The notes: generated by a model not told the origin, from the sequence alone. A stretch of DNA of 64,000 bases from Candidatus Saccharimonadota bacterium (GCA_017531585.1 JAFXKT010000001.1:1-64000), one strand, 5' to 3'. Counted from the first letter of the stretch, positions 8,485-64,000 are shown. A program made the numbers and translations.

Positions 8485-9135
8485 ATGAATTTTGAGGAGA
8501 AAAAGGCTAGCTTCGCGCAAAAATATCCTGCCTTGAAGGATATATTAAACTTCCTAAGTTTCGTAGGCGCAGTCGTTTTGGGTACCTTTATCTTGAATAG
8601 TTTTGTTTTTCGTAGTTACAACGTCGTTGGCGGCAGTATGGAGAACACTCTTCATTCTGGCGAGCGCGTCATCGTAAACCGCTTCGCTGTTACTATGTCG
8701 CACTTCCTTGGACAGGAATATGTCCCAAATCGTGGCGATATCATTATCTTTGCAAATGGTGGCAACACTGGCACTAAGAGCTGTGAGGCCCAGGCAGGCA
8801 TTGCAGATCAATACATCGTGAAGCGCGTGATTGCCTTCCCTGGAGAGCGCGTAACAGTCGAAGATGGCGTTTTGACCGTCTACAACGACCAACATCCAGA
8901 AGGTTTCCACCCAGACGACGACACCAGAAAATCCGACACAGATGGCCCAAAAAGCTACACATCTGGCAGCGTAAACATGATTGTTCCAGAGGGCGAATTG
9001 TTCGTAAGTGGCGACAACCGCGAAGGCAGCAACTCACTAGACTCCAGAAGCGGTTTAGGAACGATTCCGTTCTGCCGAATCATTGGACCGGCAACGATTA
9101 GGATTTGGCCATTGAATAAGATTAGAACGTTTTAA
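8485..9135 (+). CDS. lepB: Signal peptidase I (active form)
   Basis: 216 residues. One N-terminal membrane anchor (about 22-40), then the S26 catalytic domain. The nucleophile is Ser51 (VVGGSMENTL) and the general base is Lys113 (QYIVKRVIAFPGE). The C-terminal SGDNRxxSxDSR box is present as SGDNREGSNSLDSR. It removes signal peptides from exported proteins at the outer face of the membrane. This is the housekeeping enzyme of the window and contrasts with the homologue at 61695-62183, which lacks both catalytic residues. The mRNA is probably leaderless (TATGCTAAAAT ends 7 bases before the ATG). Confidence 0.95.
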   Translation: MNFEEKKASFAQKYPALKDILNFLSFVGAVVLGTFILNSFVFRSYNVVGGSMENTLHSGERVIVNRFAVTMSHFLGQEYVPNRGDIIIFANGGNTGTKSCEAQAGIADQYIVKRVIAFPGERVTVEDGVLTVYNDQHPEGFHPDDDTRKSDTDGPKSYTSGSVNMIVPEGELFVSGDNREGSNSLDSRSGLGTIPFCRIIGPATIRIWPLNKIRTF

Positions 9136-54218: not shown

Positions 54219-55997
54219 GTGTCTAAAGTTGAATACAAAATCCTAGATTTATTCTCGGGCTGCGGCGGCTTCGCTGTAGGTTTTGATATGCTGCCAGAGT
54301 TCGAGACTCTAATCGCAGTAGATATTATGGATGATGCGCTCAAAACATTTGCGCGTAATTTCCCAAAGGCGAAGATCATCAATGGCGATATCTGTGACGA
54401 GGCAGTTAAACGCGACATTATTCAAAGCGCAAAAGAGCTCAAGATTAATATGATTGTCGGCGGTCCGCCATGTCAGGGATTTAGTAACAAGGGTAAAAAA
54501 CTCGGTCTAAAAGACCCGAGAAATTTCCTATTCAGAGAATACTTAAAACTCGTAGACGAGATTAAACCGGATGTCTTCGTGATCGAAAACGTAAAAGCGC
54601 TCGTCGCAACCGAAAACGGGTGGTTTATTAATGAAATCCTAAATGAAATCAAAAAACTTGGCTATACAGTAAACTACAACATTGCGACAGCGAGCAATTA
54701 TGGCGTCCCGCAACAGCGTCAAAGAACGATCATTCTTGCATCAAAAGACGCTAAAATTGACTTCCCAATTCCTAAGTATGACGAAGAAAAGAAGACCACG
54801 GTTCGTGATGCTATTTCAGATTTAGCATATCTCGAATCCGGAGAGGGAGAAATAGAGAGTAATTATAAAAATACCGCCCAAAGCAAATACCAAGAATTAT
54901 TAAGAAATCCGTCAGGAAAACTCTATAATCATAACGCAACAAATCATTCAGAAGTTGCTTTGTCCAAATTAAAAATGATCCCGCCGGAGGGCGATAAGAA
55001 ATCACTTCCAAAAGAATTACTTGGAAACCAAAAATTCAATACGACATGGGGGCGCCTAAAATGGGATAGCCAGAGCCCAACGATAGATACCCGTTTCGAT
55101 ACCCCATCCAACGGCACTAATAGCCATCCTGAACTAGACCGCTCCATTACCCCACGGGAAGCGGCACGCATTCAAAGTTTTCCTGATTCATTCAAATTCT
55201 TAGGTTCAAAAACATACATCTGCAAGCAGATCGGTAACGCCGTTCCCCCACTACTAGCAAAAGCAATCGGTGAAGCAGTTCTGTTCGGTGAGAAAAAACA
55301 AGATTATCTCATTTATAATCGTGATGCATATAGATTCTTGCGCGATATGGCTTCATATGGTTTCGAAGTAGATCACATAATCACCGACCCACCATACAAT
55401 ATTTCGAAGGACAACAATTTTAGCACCATGAAGAGCGCCAAGCGTCAAGGCGTTGATTTTGGCGAGTGGGACAAAGAGTTTGACTTAACTGGCTGGATTC
55501 CTGATGCAGAAAAGATATTAAGACCAGGTGGCACGTTTATAATCTTTAACTCATATCGTAATCTAACGCCTATTATCGAAAAGATGGAGTCGTGCGGACT
55601 GGTTATAAAGGACGTCATTAAATGGATAAAGACCAATCCAATGCCGAGAAACATCGATAGGCGCTACGTACAGGACACGGAGTATGCCATATGGGCCGTA
55701 AAACCGAAAAAACCTTGGGTATTCAACAAGAAAGCCGATAAACCATATTTACGAGCCGAATACAGAACTTCTACGGTTAGTGGCAACGAACGCACAAGCC
55801 ATCCAACTCAAAAAAGCGAAAAGCTGATGAGCGAAATAATTGAAGTTCACAGCAATAAGGGTGATTTAATTCTAGATCCATTTATGGGCAGCGGAACAAC
55901 CGGCGTGTCTGCTCTATCTAAGGGGCGCCGATTCATAGGTTGCGAGTTAAGCGAAGAATACTTCGATATAGCAAAAGAAAGGATTTCTAATAAATGA
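54219..55997 (+). CDS. Fused DNA methyltransferase: m5C domain plus amino-methyltransferase domain
   Basis: 592 residues, GTG start at 54219 behind AAGG. Residues 1-~360 form a cytosine-5 methyltransferase: DLFSGCGGFAVGFDM (I), VGGPPCQGFSNKGKK (IV, catalytic Cys), FVIENV (VI), QQRQRTI (VIII) and QIGNAVPPLLAKAI (X). Residues ~365-592 form an N6-adenine/N4-cytosine methyltransferase with HIITDPPYNIS (IV) before LILDPFMGSGTTGVSA (I), the beta-type order. One polypeptide with both activities suits an asymmetric site where each strand needs a different modification. The next gene, overlapping by 4 bases, encodes the matching HNH restriction enzyme. Confidence 0.92.
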   Translation: MSKVEYKILDLFSGCGGFAVGFDMLPEFETLIAVDIMDDALKTFARNFPKAKIINGDICDEAVKRDIIQSAKELKINMIVGGPPCQGFSNKGKKLGLKDPRNFLFREYLKLVDEIKPDVFVIENVKALVATENGWFINEILNEIKKLGYTVNYNIATASNYGVPQQRQRTIILASKDAKIDFPIPKYDEEKKTTVRDAISDLAYLESGEGEIESNYKNTAQSKYQELLRNPSGKLYNHNATNHSEVALSKLKMIPPEGDKKSLPKELLGNQKFNTTWGRLKWDSQSPTIDTRFDTPSNGTNSHPELDRSITPREAARIQSFPDSFKFLGSKTYICKQIGNAVPPLLAKAIGEAVLFGEKKQDYLIYNRDAYRFLRDMASYGFEVDHIITDPPYNISKDNNFSTMKSAKRQGVDFGEWDKEFDLTGWIPDAEKILRPGGTFIIFNSYRNLTPIIEKMESCGLVIKDVIKWIKTNPMPRNIDRRYVQDTEYAIWAVKPKKPWVFNKKADKPYLRAEYRTSTVSGNERTSHPTQKSEKLMSEIIEVHSNKGDLILDPFMGSGTTGVSALSKGRRFIGCELSEEYFDIAKERISNK

Positions 55998-57148
55998 AAG
56001 ACGCCGATGATGTTCTAAAAATGCCTATCGATACTCTCCTGGCAGCATTCTTTAACGCAGAAGATAAAAACGGCAATTTTGCTATTGTCTCAAATTACAG
56101 AGAAACTACATATATGAGAATGATTCCTGGCTCTCATAGAAATACGGCAGAAAAACTGCGCAGAAAATACGATTTGCCATTTATGCAAGTTGGAAATACA
56201 AAAATAGAGGCCATAATATCGAACCGAAAAGGTTATTCGCTCGAAGAATTTCGCCATCTATTATACGAAAACATTCTCCAAAAATTTTTTATCACGAATG
56301 CCGGTACTGATATTGACCGAGAAATCGCACTAGCTCTTTTTATTTTTAGGGGAAGCGCTGATTTTATTTACGGGTTTTATTCGGTTGACTTAAAGACACC
56401 ATCGATTCAATTCTTGAATGATATGTATAAAATACTGCTATCCTCAAACGATTTAATTAACCGTCTTAATCTAAATTTTCGCGAATTTCAGCCACAATAT
56501 CTACAAGGAATACAACGCAATACACAAGTAAGAATAAACCTTAAATGGTTTTTTGATAACGTCATGGCATATTATTCAGACATTAACGACTACAAATATG
56601 GTGTTCTATTCCATAATCACACAAAGCTAGGCGATACTAGACGCTATAATGCATTTGTCGAAAGATTGACAATCTATCGAGAAGACATTATTGGCAGAAA
56701 GCTCAGTGATCGGGAAAAAGAAAGGATGCGAGAAGAACTCAACCTCGAGATTTCTAACAATGATGGCGAGCAGGTCGCTGGCAGGAATCAAAAGATTGTT
56801 TCGTTTGCGAGAGAGGCGTTTCCTGATGAATGCGTCGGATGTCGTAATCATTACAATATCGCGGACAGAAGTTTTATTATGCCACGAAATGGACGTTACT
56901 ATTTTGAAATAAACCACGTCATACCGTATGCTAATGACAATAAAAAAGTCGATGTGCTCGACAATTTAGTAAAACTGTGCCCTACGTGTCACCGCGCATT
57001 AACGCCAGGGCGTGCCGACGAAACACTCCAACGCGAAATAATCCATAATATGCTCGAGTCGCGGCCAGAAGTAAAGCAATTCGTTATAGCAATGGAGAGC
57101 GGTAGATTTGCAACGCCGGAAGATTATGTCTTTAGTGCTCTAAGATAA
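55994..57148 (+). CDS. HNH-type restriction endonuclease
   Basis: 384 residues. Up to ~270 there is no recognised domain (probably DNA recognition). Then the HNH nuclease: DECVGCRNHYN, YYFEINHVIPYAND, VDVLDNLVKLCPTCHRAL, with two Cys pairs for zinc and the catalytic His in EINHVIP. The start overlaps the methyltransferase stop, giving a compact type II restriction-modification pair. The recognition site is not readable from the sequence. Confidence 0.88.
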   Translation: MKDADDVLKMPIDTLLAAFFNAEDKNGNFAIVSNYRETTYMRMIPGSHRNTAEKLRRKYDLPFMQVGNTKIEAIISNRKGYSLEEFRHLLYENILQKFFITNAGTDIDREIALALFIFRGSADFIYGFYSVDLKTPSIQFLNDMYKILLSSNDLINRLNLNFREFQPQYLQGIQRNTQVRINLKWFFDNVMAYYSDINDYKYGVLFHNHTKLGDTRRYNAFVERLTIYREDIIGRKLSDREKERMREELNLEISNNDGEQVAGRNQKIVSFAREAFPDECVGCRNHYNIADRSFIMPRNGRYYFEINHVIPYANDNKKVDVLDNLVKLCPTCHRALTPGRADETLQREIIHNMLESRPEVKQFVIAMESGRFATPEDYVFSALR

Positions 57149-60863: not shown

Positions 60864-61694
60864 TTATTTCTTCTTGATTGGATTGTTTGGATCAAAGCTA
60901 ACGTAAACTACTTGGCGCATGTTTGCCTGACCATGACAGGTAGACAAGGCTAGGATTTTGTATTCCGGATTCATTTCCCTATAATGCAAAGCCTTCTCTT
61001 TGATGTAGCTGCGGACAGTGTCGCTCTTATTCTTGATAGAGCCAACATCATAAACACCATCGTCATCCTTGTCCGTCACGAACTCAGCATTAACTGTCAG
61101 ATTATATGTTCCATGAAGCGTATAAAGCTTGCCGGTCGTGTGCTCATTAAAGAATTTGTCGTTATTGTATTCCTTAAGCGGTCCAAACATCGCTTCGTTA
61201 TTAGTATTGTGACCATAGACCAGAGTATAGTCGTCAGAAAAATCGCTTGAGTTCTGCCAGTCGACATAAATACTGCCGGAGTAGGCATATTCTTTGAGAT
61301 AGTTATGAGAGAGATAATACTGGTTGTTATTGGTCTGAAGAATCGGGTAATCTATTGTCGTGCCTTCCAAAGTTAGCCAGCCAATAATATCTGGGTTCTT
61401 TTGGCGCAAACCTTCGAGATCGATATTGCGCTCGCCATCTTCCTCAGAAATATATTGCTTCACTTCTTCAGGGAGCCCAGCCTCATGATAAACCTTTACG
61501 GAATCATAAATCGCATAAAGACTAAACATCAAAATCAGCAAAAAGAAGAGAATGCAGGCCCAGTCGATAATAAAGTTGGCAGCATCAACGACTTTTTCGC
61601 CAGCACTAGTTTTCTTGCTAGTAGCTTTCTTTGGGCTGGTTTTAGCCTGAGCCTTCTCTGCTTCACTAACAGCTTCAGATTTAGCCGCTTCCAT
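60864..61694 (-). CDS. Class B sortase (pilus-type)
   Basis: 276 residues. A basic, Lys/Ala-rich cytoplasmic start (1-35), a membrane anchor (43-63) and an extracytoplasmic sortase domain. Catalytic His162 (LVYGHNTNNEAMF), Cys253 (ILALSTCHG) and Arg260 (NMRQVVYV) are all present; YPILQTNNNQYYLSHNY and GSIYVDWQNSSDF are class B features. Sortases join sorting signals to pilin Lys residues or to the wall. It follows the signal-peptidase homologue without a gap and is the last gene of the pilus locus. In streptococcal FCT islands the pilin polymerase is likewise class-B-like. It may also anchor the 949-residue surface protein. Confidence 0.93.
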   Translation of the reverse strand: MEAAKSEAVSEAEKAQAKTSPKKATSKKTSAGEKVVDAANFIIDWACILFFLLILMFSLYAIYDSVKVYHEAGLPEEVKQYISEEDGERNIDLEGLRQKNPDIIGWLTLEGTTIDYPILQTNNNQYYLSHNYLKEYAYSGSIYVDWQNSSDFSDDYTLVYGHNTNNEAMFGPLKEYNNDKFFNEHTTGKLYTLHGTYNLTVNAEFVTDKDDDGVYDVGSIKNKSDTVRSYIKEKALHYREMNPEYKILALSTCHGQANMRQVVYVSFDPNNPIKKK

Positions 61695-62183
61695 TTACAA
61701 CCCGCGCGTACGCAAAATACTTATCAGTTTTCCATCAATATCTTCTGGCGGATAGGCGCCACTCGTACGAGAATCGTTTGGTTCGTCGCGATTATCGCCA
61801 ACAGCAAAGAAATGGCCGGCTGGAACGGTATAAGGGTAAGTTATACCGCCATTGATTTTATCTTTGCCAGTAAAGACTTTGTCGATGTCTAGTGCAGAAT
61901 CATTAACATAGAGTTTGCCAGATTCCGTCATCGTAACTTTGTCGCCACCACAAGCCACGACGCGAAGGAACGCACGGCCACCGCCTTGCTTGATTGCGAC
62001 GACATCTCCAGGATGACAACTTTTGTCTAGGTGGTAATAGAGAGCCAAATCGCCACCATTGATGCTTGGAGACATATTGTTTGAGTTTACGCGAGCGAAA
62101 CCAAAGATTATGAAAAAGAGTACAAAATAAACAAGTTCGATTACGATAATCTTGATGATTAACGATATAACTTTGCGTTTCAT
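61695..62183 (-). CDS. Signal peptidase I homologue lacking both catalytic residues (SipA-like pilus assembly factor)
   Basis: 162 residues. A membrane anchor (8-28) and an S26 fold with the late box AVGDNRDEPNDSRTSG intact. In the nucleophile box ARVNSNNMSPSI the residue before Met, Ser in active enzymes, is Asn36. In the base box GRAFLRVVACGGD the Lys is Leu73. The active enzyme of this genome (8485-9135) has Ser and Lys at both places. In Streptococcus pyogenes the pilus protein SipA is likewise a signal peptidase homologue without the dyad, and is needed for pilus assembly. The gene stands between the pilin and the sortase genes, as expected for such a role. Confidence 0.85.
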   Translation of the reverse strand: MKRKVISLIIKIIVIELVYFVLFFIIFGFARVNSNNMSPSINGGDLALYYHLDKSCHPGDVVAIKQGGGRAFLRVVACGGDKVTMTESGKLYVNDSALDIDKVFTGKDKINGGITYPYTVPAGHFFAVGDNRDEPNDSRTSGAYPPEDIDGKLISILRTRGL

Positions 62184-62199
62184 AGTTTATTTATCTCAA

Positions 62200-62232
62200 A
62201 AAGCCCGAGCCGATTCAAGCCCGGGCTTTAGG
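62200..62232 (-). terminator. Hairpin with T tail between pilin and SipA-like genes (likely attenuator)
   Basis: AAAGCCCG (62200-62207) pairs with CGGGCTTT (62222-62229), minus-strand tail TTTTTGAG. Partial termination here would give more pilin than sortase. Confidence 0.75.
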
Positions 62233-62240
62233 TATTTATT

Positions 62241-63419
62241 TTAGGCTTCTTTCTTTGAAGTTTTTCTTAAGATTACTACGCTACCACCAGCGATGATTGC
62301 GAGAATTACGAATGGGAGAATCATGAAGAATCTACCAGCTGGGCTACCTTCGCTTAGGGTGTTTACGTATAGATATTCGTCATTGTCGCCTAGAGAAGCC
62401 TTGGTAATTGGGCGCTCCAAGATATTACCGTCATTCCAATGGTTAATTCTATTCGTGCCAGTAAGATCACTATATGCATCAGTCGTAGTTGAAGACAAAG
62501 AAGAAGGTAGGTTTTCCGTAATTGTGTAGCTGTAACCGCCAGGAACTAACTCATTCGTGTTGCCGGTAACACCAATAAGCACCATTTCATTGTGGGCGAG
62601 TTTAATACCTGTCTTTGTACATTTTGCACCGACATTGTTGCTCGTAAAGGTACAGGACGTTTCAGTACCATCATCTAGCTTAAAGTGAACCGTTTCGTTA
62701 TTCGAGCCCGTCCATGCATAATTCCTAGTTAGTTCTACAGTAAAATCATACTGCTCTGTTGGATCAGCAATGTTACCCTTTACCTGCTTCTTGAGCGAGA
62801 TATGAGTCTTGGTATATGATGCAGTGCTAGTAAAGTTTGGAGTGGCCTTAGCCTTAATCATGATGCCATAGTTGCCAGTCGTGTTGCTCGATATAGGATC
62901 GCCGTTACCGTCTACGTCTAGATAGGCAGAAAATTCGATTTCCTGATTAGGATCGTCTGCATAATATCCGCCATTATCGCCACTACCAGAAGTATTTCTC
63001 TCGGTAACATTTACTGTATACTCGCCATATACCATATTAGTATTAGTAAATGCGCCGCTAAAGTTCAGGGTGGCACAATTTTCTGCGGTTGAGCTAGCGC
63101 CACCGTTGTTATTTATAGTTAACGTCAAGACACCAGCATTAGCGGCAGAAGAGCTATAGCTGACGCCAGTCGCAGAAGTAGCCGTTACGCCCTGCAAATC
63201 GATATAATTACTAACATTCGAAAGATCATAAATAAACGTATCCGAGTAAGGACCTTGTAATCCTTCTACTTTTTTACAGACCTGTACACTCTGTGCGCTT
63301 GAATCATAGCGCATTTCCATATTGTTTGCTGCGCTTGCATTGCCCGCGAAGCTTGCGATGCCGAACACGCTGGCTACGGTTGCGGCAGCAATATTTGTTA
63401 GTTGTTTTATTTTACCCAT
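62241..63419 (-). CDS. Major pilin-like surface protein (FctA/Spy0128-type)
   Basis: 392 residues. Signal peptide ending FAGNASA|ANN (~30). An N-terminal domain (~40-200) is followed by a second domain from ~205 with HISLKKQVKGN, QYDFTVELTRN and GGYSYTITENLP, the pattern of self-crosslinking pilin domains (Lys early, Glu in YTITE). The C-terminus is a sorting signal: LSEGSPAGR, a hydrophobic stretch and RKTSKKEA. It lacks LPxTG but resembles the EVPTG signal of streptococcal FctA in position and form. Own promoter; followed by an attenuator, SipA-like and sortase genes. Likely the shaft subunit of a covalent pilus. Confidence 0.8.
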   Translation of the reverse strand: MGKIKQLTNIAAATVASVFGIASFAGNASAANNMEMRYDSSAQSVQVCKKVEGLQGPYSDTFIYDLSNVSNYIDLQGVTATSATGVSYSSSAANAGVLTLTINNNGGASSTAENCATLNFSGAFTNTNMVYGEYTVNVTERNTSGSGDNGGYYADDPNQEIEFSAYLDVDGNGDPISSNTTGNYGIMIKAKATPNFTSTASYTKTHISLKKQVKGNIADPTEQYDFTVELTRNYAWTGSNNETVHFKLDDGTETSCTFTSNNVGAKCTKTGIKLAHNEMVLIGVTGNTNELVPGGYSYTITENLPSSLSSTTTDAYSDLTGTNRINHWNDGNILERPITKASLGDNDEYLYVNTLSEGSPAGRFFMILPFVILAIIAGGSVVILRKTSKKEA

Positions 63420-63446
63420 TTTCTCTCTCTTTTACCTTTAATTTTT

Positions 63447-63475
63447 ATTTTAACATAAGCGTTATTGCTTATCAA
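63447..63475 (-). promoter_or_regulatory. Promoter of the pilin gene
   Basis: Minus-strand TTGATA (63470-63475), 17 bases, TAAAAT (63447-63452) with extended TATG; an AAGC-AATAAC-GCTT dyad lies in the spacer. Confidence 0.75.
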
Positions 63476-64000
63476 TTAATCCTTTTTCTTTTTAACTTTT
63501 TTCGACCTGATCATAATAATTGTTACGATTGCGCCTATCGATATTAGAGCCAACCATACATAAAGACCGTTTTTGTAGTTTAGACCCGTATTTACGATAT
63601 CGATAATTTCGTCGATTGGATCTTTCGGGATGTTGCGGTAGTTAATAAATAACGTAAAGTTATCTTCTGGTTCTTCGTTTACCGTCTTGGTTATTTCGGT
63701 TCGATATCCAGCGTCTTTGCTATCAATCCAGGTTTTGTAATCATTTACGTCTGGAATTTCTTCGTAGCTATATTCAAGCCCGTAAGGAATTTCGTAGTTA
63801 CCATTTTCGTCGATACCGATCGTGGCGGTTTCGCCGTGGCGCAAGTAGAAGACTGCTTTCTTGCCACCTTCGGCATATTCGTCAGAAGTTACTTCCTGGC
63901 CGCCGAATTTATATTCACCAGACGGAGTACGAATCGTATAGGTATAACCTTCGCCTTCGATTTGGAAGATATATTTGAATACATCTTTATCGCTAGCGTC
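63476..64000 (-). CDS. Pilus ancillary subunit / FctA-like surface protein, N-terminal part outside the window
   Basis: 174 residues are visible; the frame is open to the window edge, so the protein is longer. The visible part begins DASDKDVFKYIFQIEGEG and continues AVFYLRHGETATIGI, YEIPYGLEYSYEEIPD, the layout of isopeptide-forming pilin domains (last strand Y-x-Y-x-E-x). The end is a sorting signal, DIVNTGLNYKNG, a membrane segment and KKVKKKKD, an xPxTG-like motif with Val-Asn. It would be the tip or adhesin subunit encoded upstream of the pilin, like Cpa in streptococci. Confidence 0.75.
   Translation of the reverse strand, partial: DASDKDVFKYIFQIEGEGYTYTIRTPSGEYKFGGQEVTSDEYAEGGKKAVFYLRHGETATIGIDENGNYEIPYGLEYSYEEIPDVNDYKTWIDSKDAGYRTEITKTVNEEPEDNFTLFINYRNIPKDPIDEIIDIVNTGLNYKNGLYVWLALISIGAIVTIIMIRSKKVKKKKD

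What the first reader, a model, noticed from the sequence alone, without database searches (positions are those of the whole stretch)
60864..64000. Sortase-assembled pilus locus of streptococcal FCT type in a probable CPR bacterium
Seen: four adjacent minus-strand genes encode an isopeptide-domain surface protein with sorting signal (partial), a pilin with isopeptide-like domains and sorting signal, an inactive signal peptidase homologue and a class B sortase. Known: S. pyogenes FCT islands encode Cpa, SipA, FctA and a class-B-like SrtC that builds a covalent pilus. Inferred: this organism builds a similar covalent pilus, perhaps to hold its host cell. CPR bacteria are usually discussed in terms of type IV pili, so this would be a different attachment device.
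Basis: partly seen in the sequence, partly recalled or inferred. Interest (0 to 1): 0.87.

Follow-up and report, generated by a model that had tools for sequence, protein, structure and literature searches.

The report
Covalent sortase pilus in Saccharibacteria
A tiny, probably parasitic bacterium of the Saccharibacteria carries a complete gene set for a chemically cross-linked pilus of the kind known from Streptococcus pyogenes; nearly all its sister species carry related sets, so these cells may have a second attachment device besides their type IV pili.

Summary
The minus-strand operon (60864 to 68893, running past the window end) encodes a 1420-aa surface protein, a 379-aa ancillary protein, a 392-aa pilin, a catalytically dead signal-peptidase homologue (SipA) and a class B sortase. 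The best solved-structure relatives of sortase and SipA are S. pyogenes Spy0129 and SipA. A profile of related pilins finds the streptococcal FctA/T-antigens (E 5e-36), and a predicted fold of the window pilin matches FctA best (Z 14). The genus is Saccharibacteria. Class B sortases occur in 35 of 37 of its genomes and in none of 24 other families of the order. Pilin, SipA and sortase sit in that order in all 26 loci with enough sequence. So this is an FctA/SipA/class-B pilus, probably acquired once and then diversified. It differs from the FCT island in gene order, in lost N-domain isopeptide residues and in an odd sorting signal on the window pilin. Type IV pilus genes are retained. Polymerisation and any role in host attachment are inferred, not shown. 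Side finding: a second sortase operon in the genus carries recurrent in-frame UGA codons, apparently under purifying selection.

The parts
60864..61694 (-). Class B sortase, 276 aa, N-terminal membrane helix; catalytic His162, Cys253, Arg260
   Evidence: TIGR03064 162 bits, above cut-off; best PDB match 3psq (Spy0129) E 5.3e-28; in the clade next to pilus-type class B sortases
61695..62183 (-). SipA-like pseudo signal peptidase, 162 aa; catalytic Ser -> Asn36, Lys -> Leu73
   Evidence: PDB 4n31 SipA E 8.6e-23 versus at best 1.7e-6 for a signal peptidase I; residues
62201..62229 (-). Stem-loop followed by T run between pilin and SipA genes; probable attenuator or terminator
   Evidence: -20.1 kcal/mol; stem kept with a different sequence in other loci of this sub-group (L096, L060, L055)
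62241..63419 (-). FctA-type shaft pilin, 392 aa: signal peptide, two domains, DUF7601/CnaB-like C-domain with triad K211/E302/N353, non-canonical sorting signal SPAG, TM helix, basic tail
   Evidence: DUF7601 above cut-off; A2 profile to FctA; fold match Z 14.3; residues
63476..64000 (-). C-terminal half of the ancillary pilin-like protein (379 aa; the gene begins at window coordinate 64615, outside the window), DUF7601, sorting motif IVNTG; upstream of it, outside the window, lies the 1420-aa surface protein (64631-68893)
8560..9117 (+). Separate signal peptidase I homologue of the same genome (not part of the operon), so SipA need not be the processing enzyme
   Evidence: TIGR02227 116 bits over cut-off 47; its catalytic residues were not inspected

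Best explanation
The operon encodes a covalent, sortase-polymerised pilus of the FctA/SipA/class-B-sortase type. Precursor pilins are exported, cleaved by the genome's ordinary signal peptidase and held in the membrane by their C-terminal helix. The class B sortase cuts the sorting signal and joins the new C-terminus to a lysine on the next pilin (the K161-equivalent loop of FctA), making the shaft. SipA, a signal-peptidase fold that cannot cut, presumably presents substrate to the sortase. The 1420-aa protein is probably the tip and the 379-aa protein a second minor (tip or base) subunit. A hairpin after the pilin gene would keep pilin in excess over SipA and sortase. Anchoring to the wall would fall to the ~450-aa sortase conserved across the order. 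Homology, gene order and residue conservation are shown; polymerisation, order of subunits and biological role are inferred.
For: Best solved relatives are the S. pyogenes counterparts: SrtB to Spy0129, SipA to SipA, pilin profile to T18.1 and Spy0128 over nearly the full length, modelled pilin to FctA with Z 14.3 over 250 residues. Pilin-SipA-SrtB order in 26 of 26 loci with enough sequence. K161-equivalent Lys in 43 of 46 pilins. All 28 SipA proteins lack the catalytic Lys. Sortase tree places them beside Spy0129 and the FCT-ordered Lachnospiraceae and Coriobacteriaceae loci. Purifying selection on SipA and SrtB with allelic replacement of the pilin, reminiscent of T-antigens. Hairpin.
Against: No expression or ladder data. 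The window pilin's sorting signal (SPAG) lacks the Thr-Gly that class B pilus sortases normally cut, and in this sub-group the K161-equivalent lysine is displaced (K189 or K191). N-domain isopeptide acceptor is Ser198, not Asn. No FctB-type base subunit with a canonical LPXTG was identified. The pilin model has modest confidence (mean pLDDT 61.5, five sequences).
Confidence: 0.87

Rival explanations
1. The class B sortase attaches the surface proteins singly to the cell wall; there is no polymer.
For: Many class B sortases anchor monomers; the window pilin's sorting signal is atypical.
Against: Full-length FctA homology, K161-equivalent lysine in 43 of 46 pilins, SipA always directly upstream, sortase clade beside pilus-type enzymes and apart from non-pilus SrtBs.
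Confidence: 0.09
2. A class B sortase system for haem or iron acquisition (IsdC-like).
For: TIGR03064 also covers such sortases.
Against: No haem-binding or transport genes in the operon; neighbours are pilins and SipA; tree position.
Confidence: 0.01
3. The operon is a decayed or mis-binned relic from a gut Firmicute or Coriobacterium.
For: Related FCT-ordered loci exist in rumen Lachnospiraceae and Coriobacteriaceae.
Against: Intact frames, dN/dS about 0.03-0.16 in operon genes other than the pilin, syntenic copies in G035 and G011, matching G+C, genus-wide occurrence.
Confidence: 0.01
4. A pilus, but for binding animal mucosa, diet particles or other community members rather than a bacterial host (an alternative to the host-holding role, not to the pilus itself).
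For: One named relative comes from sheep jejunum; large surface proteins vary between loci.
Against: Cultured Saccharibacteria live on bacterial hosts (PMC12857230); nothing in the sequence decides.
Confidence: 0.4

Closest known systems
S. pyogenes FCT-2/3/4 pilus (Cpa, SipA/LepA, FctA, class B sortase SrtC1/2, FctB)
   Same: Homologous class B sortase, dead signal-peptidase homologue and two-domain shaft pilin; C-domain Lys-Glu-Asn triad; acceptor lysine in the K161 position in most genus pilins; large surface protein at the head of the operon; allelic variation of the shaft pilin
   Different: Order large protein - ancillary - pilin - SipA - sortase, with SipA after the pilin instead of between Cpa and FctA; N-domain acceptor Asn replaced by Ser; SPAG sorting signal; two DUF7601 pilin-like proteins in tandem; no obvious FctB; terminator-like hairpin before SipA; found in Saccharibacteria
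Streptococcal pilus islet 2 (shaft pilin PitB)
   Same: PitB is the top Foldseek match of the window pilin; signal-peptidase homologues are needed for pilus assembly in S. pneumoniae too (PMC7900414)
   Different: As above; pilin sequence only distantly related
FCT-ordered loci in rumen Lachnospiraceae (L119) and Coriobacteriaceae (L120)
   Same: Large surface protein, SipA, protein with sorting signal, class B sortase of the same clade
   Different: SipA precedes the pilin; different pilin sequence; other phyla
Type IV pili of Saccharibacteria (Xie 2022, cited in PMC12857230)
   Same: Surface filament of the same group of organisms
   Different: Non-covalent, ATPase-driven; encoded separately and retained here
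Sortase family fam000526 of CPR bacteria (PMC6744442)
   Same: Earlier report that many CPR bacteria encode a sortase
   Different: That report describes one widespread sortase family without pilins or SipA; the pilus-type class B enzymes here are confined to one genus in our samples

Membership tests
FctA/SipA/class B sortase pilus | Class B sortase of the pilus-building clade | tested here: met
   TIGR03064 above cut-off; groups with Spy0129, support 100/94 for the split from other SrtBs
FctA/SipA/class B sortase pilus | Two-domain Ig-like FctA shaft pilin | tested here: met
   Profile match 5.3e-36 to 8f70, 4.6e-20 to 3b2m; fold Z 14.3
FctA/SipA/class B sortase pilus | SipA: signal-peptidase homologue without Ser-Lys dyad | tested here: met
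   4n31 E 8.6e-23; Asn36 and Leu73 at the dyad positions
FctA/SipA/class B sortase pilus | C-domain isopeptide triad residues | tested here: met
   K211/E302/N353; the bond itself is not testable here
FctA/SipA/class B sortase pilus | N-domain isopeptide triad residues | tested here: not met
   K49/E140 kept, acceptor is Ser198; most genus pilins also lack the Asn. This is a feature of FctA, not needed for polymerisation by the sortase
FctA/SipA/class B sortase pilus | Acceptor lysine at the K161 position | tested here: inconclusive
   43 of 46 genus pilins have it; the window sub-group aligns Tyr184 there with K189/K191 nearby
FctA/SipA/class B sortase pilus | LPXTG-like sorting signal on the shaft pilin | tested here: inconclusive
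   SPAG in the window pilin; xTG in most genus pilins and IVNTG in the ancillary protein; FCT-3 FctB has LPLAG (PMC7900414)
FctA/SipA/class B sortase pilus | SDS-resistant pilin ladder, filament by EM | not testable with these tools
   needs expression
S. pyogenes FCT island proper | Order cpa-sipA-fctA-srtC-fctB with a regulator | tested here: not met
   Order is large protein - ancillary - pilin - SipA - SrtB; no regulator recognised next to it
Class C (SpaA-type) sortase pilus | Class C sortase | tested here: not met
   This operon's sortase is class B; a separate class C locus exists elsewhere in the genome

The most novel reading that the evidence does not exclude
Sortase-built covalent pili are a second, dedicated attachment organelle of one Saccharibacteria genus, acquired once from a gut Gram-positive, then duplicated and diversified, with shaft pilin alleles and tip proteins exchanged between strains to match host or partner cells, and with a parallel operon whose expression is gated by UGA readthrough.
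Probability: 0.25. Interest if true: 0.88.

Novelty: new variant of a known kind. Interest (0 to 1): 0.7.

Why it matters
How Saccharibacteria hold on to other cells is a central open question, and the discussion centres on type IV pili. A covalent pilus confined to one genus gives a concrete second candidate that can be tested with purified proteins. It also shows that the SipA/class-B pilus, known mainly from streptococci, spread to a bacterium with a genome of about 1 Mb and varied there, which may help to explain what SipA and the isopeptide bonds are needed for. No paper in the searched library reports it; most subscription journals are not in that library.

Tried and rejected
Pfam and NCBIfam alone left pilin and ancillary protein as 'DUF7601' or unnamed; a single-sequence PDB search with the pilin found nothing, only the genus profile did. 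A viral-contig scan with the pilin alignment could not be run (no conserved stretch). Iron-type SrtB, relic and contamination readings were considered and rejected. No thioester (Cpa-type) domain appeared among the Pfam matches of the large protein. Global UGA reassignment was considered for the second operon and not supported: release factor 2 present in nearly all genus genomes, tRNA-Trp anticodon CCA in all 16 genes checked, UGA used as an ordinary stop. The genus name could not be read from the data; only 'Saccharibacteria' and the titles of three records are known. Single-sequence or structural absence of other families in the fold search is not taken as evidence.

Full report
What is there. 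The window is bases 1-64000 of a 456-kb contig (C4) of a 1.01-Mb genome in six contigs, 99.6% complete. The four reported frames are present. Fetching the next 12 kb shows the whole operon, all on the minus strand: a 1420-aa surface protein (64631-68893), a 379-aa ancillary protein (63476-64615), the 392-aa pilin (62241-63419), SipA (61695-62183) and the sortase (60864-61694). Downstream is a methyltransferase gene on the other strand; upstream are a 321-aa gene and then genes that look like an iron-sulphur assembly (Suf) cluster (named from their sequences only).

Which organism. Contigs G007:C2 (57,689 bases) and G029:C8 (26,688 bases), both of the window's genus, match in length and position the public records behind L116 and L121, titled 'uncultured Candidatus Saccharibacteria bacterium'. 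A third Saccharibacteria record with the same pilin - SipA - sortase order (L117) is from sheep jejunum.

The sortase. It passes the curated cut-off of the class B model (162.3 against 153.75 bits) and keeps His162, Cys253 and Arg260. Its best solved relative is 3psq (E 5.3e-28), which I take to be Spy0129, the class B pilus sortase of S. pyogenes (PMC3019223; the entry code is from my own knowledge). In a 48-row maximum-likelihood tree the Saccharibacteria sortases that sit with pilins lie with 3psq, 4y4q, a Lachnospiraceae and a Coriobacteriaceae enzyme, across a branch with 100/94 support from other class B sortases.

SipA. The best solved relative is 4n31, named SipA (E 8.6e-23); the best signal peptidase I reaches only 1.7e-6. 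The nucleophile position is Asn36 and the Lys position is Leu73. In 28 genus proteins the Lys is never present, while Ser survives in some. The S. pyogenes protein has Asp and Gly at these places, shows no detectable peptidase activity and is essential for pilus polymerisation (PMC4049620). A separate signal peptidase I homologue lies at 8560-9117 of the window.

The pilin. A single-sequence PDB search found nothing, but a profile of 17 genus pilins finds the streptococcal shaft pilins: 8f70 5.3e-36, Spy0128 (3b2m) 4.6e-20, 4s3l (PitB) 2.8e-13. The predicted structure has modest confidence (mean pLDDT 61.5), yet its best matches are PitB and FctA in Foldseek and FctA with Z 14.3 over 250 residues (rmsd 5.9) in the second look; the C-domain alone matches the last domain of Cpa (Z 10.9, rmsd 2.6). 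On the alignment with Spy0128, the C-domain triad K179/E258/N303 is K211/E302/N353. The N-domain triad is K49/E140 with Ser198 in place of Asn168. A lysine at the K161 position occurs in 43 of 46 pilins; the window sub-group aligns Tyr184 there with K189 and K191 close by. K161 is the residue through which FctA subunits are linked (PMC7900414). C48 and C115 in the N-domain, and C256 and C267 in the C-domain, could form disulfides (inference).

Sorting signals. All three structural proteins end in a hydrophobic stretch and basic tail. The motifs are IVNTG (ancillary), SPAG (pilin) and APVFG (large protein). Most genus pilins have xTG, often before a Pro-Phe or Pro-Tyr in the helix. Thr to Ala has a precedent in FctB of FCT-3 (LPLAG; PMC7900414). 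Whether this sortase cuts SPAG is open.

Recurrence and gene order. Class B sortases are in 35 of 37 genomes of the genus and in none of 24 genomes from other families of the order. SipA relatives are in 24 of 37. In all 28 loci where the scan called a SipA gene it is immediately upstream of the sortase, and in all 26 with enough contig a DUF7601 pilin is immediately upstream of SipA; many also have a larger protein with a sorting signal before that. One such large protein carries Cna_B and Spy0128-like (FctA) domains by Pfam (L102). In a phylum-wide sample of 380 genomes the pilin profile hits the four members of the genus and, weakly (6.6e-4), one other genome. Class B sortases in a second sample of 362 appear in the genus, in one distant genome whose sortase belongs to the non-pilus group (L206), and as one weak hit.

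Selection. Between the window genome and G035 the flanking and other operon genes have dS 0.15-0.30, but the pilin has dS 1.23 and 66% amino-acid identity, with its signal peptide and sorting end conserved. That pattern suggests the mature pilin was replaced by a different allele. SipA and SrtB have dN/dS 0.03-0.12. A stable hairpin with a T run separates pilin from SipA (-20.1 kcal/mol); L096, L060 and L055 keep a hairpin there with a different sequence. It probably lowers expression of SipA and sortase relative to pilin (inference).

Mechanism. Shown: homology of three parts to the S. pyogenes machinery, loss of SipA catalytic residues, conserved sortase catalytic residues, genus-wide gene order. 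Inferred: export by the ordinary signal peptidase, polymerisation by SrtB through a lysine of the next pilin with help from SipA, the 1420-aa protein as tip, anchoring by the ~450-aa sortase conserved across the order. Not addressed: what the pilus binds. Type IV pilus platform genes are retained in 32 of 37 genus genomes, the window's own included.

Comparison. It works like, and by three defining features belongs to, the FctA/SipA/class B sortase pilus. It is not an FCT island: order, N-domain triad and sorting signal differ. FCT-ordered relatives exist in a rumen Lachnospiraceae (L119) and a Coriobacteriaceae (L120), which suggests acquisition from gut Gram-positives; direction was not tested further. 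Earlier work notes a widespread sortase family in CPR bacteria without linking it to pili of this kind (PMC6744442), and searches for sortase with Saccharibacteria, Patescibacteria or CPR found no report of sortase pili in the library.

Side finding. A second operon of the genus (pilin, mini-SipA, class B sortase) carries in-frame UGA codons in 12 of 15 sortases and 7 of 13 pilins examined, often at Trp columns, while release factor 2, tRNA-Trp(CCA) and ordinary UGA stops are all present. In the closest informative pair (G005/G027) dN/dS after the UGA (0.020/0.217) is as low as before it (0.017/0.219). Readthrough is a live hypothesis; parallel decay is not fully excluded.

Verdict. Observation confirmed, interpretation supported for the pilus, untested for host-holding. 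A new variant of a known kind in an unexpected organism, interest 0.7.

Noticed in passing
L043, L044, L045, L046, L047, L048, L049, L050, L051, L052, L062, L199 (sister genomes; second sortase operon): A second operon of the genus (DUF7601 pilin, ~100-aa mini-SipA, class B sortase, behind a ~540-aa gene) has in-frame TGA, never TAA or TAG within the matched domains, in 12 of 15 sortases, often at Trp columns (IA*L, D*xxYN), in 7 of 13 pilins just after the signal peptide, and once in the mini-SipA; sequence after the TGA looks under purifying selection in a close pair (dN 0.020, dS 0.217). RF2 and tRNA-Trp(CCA) are normal. Possible UGA readthrough gate.
   Followed up: partly
L008:731-8452 (G000:C5:72730-80451): The same genome has a class C sortase pilus locus: 1527-aa protein with LPHTG, 213-aa protein, 515-aa SpaA/GramPos_pilinBB protein with LPFTG, class C sortase (230 bits). 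Class C sortases pass the cut-off in 4 of 37 genus genomes.
   Followed up: partly
L012:4997-6942 (G000:C4:420996-422941): Window genome's own copy of the second operon (384-aa pilin-like protein and class B sortase), without TGA; a SipW-like signal peptidase lies about 3 kb upstream.
   Followed up: partly
L011:841-6938 (G000:C5:118840-124937): Third class B sortase, near a bifunctional penicillin-binding protein gene, grouping with non-pilus SrtBs and with one distant genome of the phylum (L206).
   Followed up: no
L009:6529-7878 (G000:C5:446528-447877): A ~450-aa sortase (best match class E, below cut-off) has counterparts of similar length in nearly all genomes of the order; likely the housekeeping sortase.
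   Followed up: no
54219-57148: A 592-aa protein that looks like two fused DNA methyltransferases (a C5-cytosine type and one with a DPPY motif) followed by a 384-aa protein with an HNH-like motif; looks like a restriction-modification system (from reading the sequences only).
   Followed up: no
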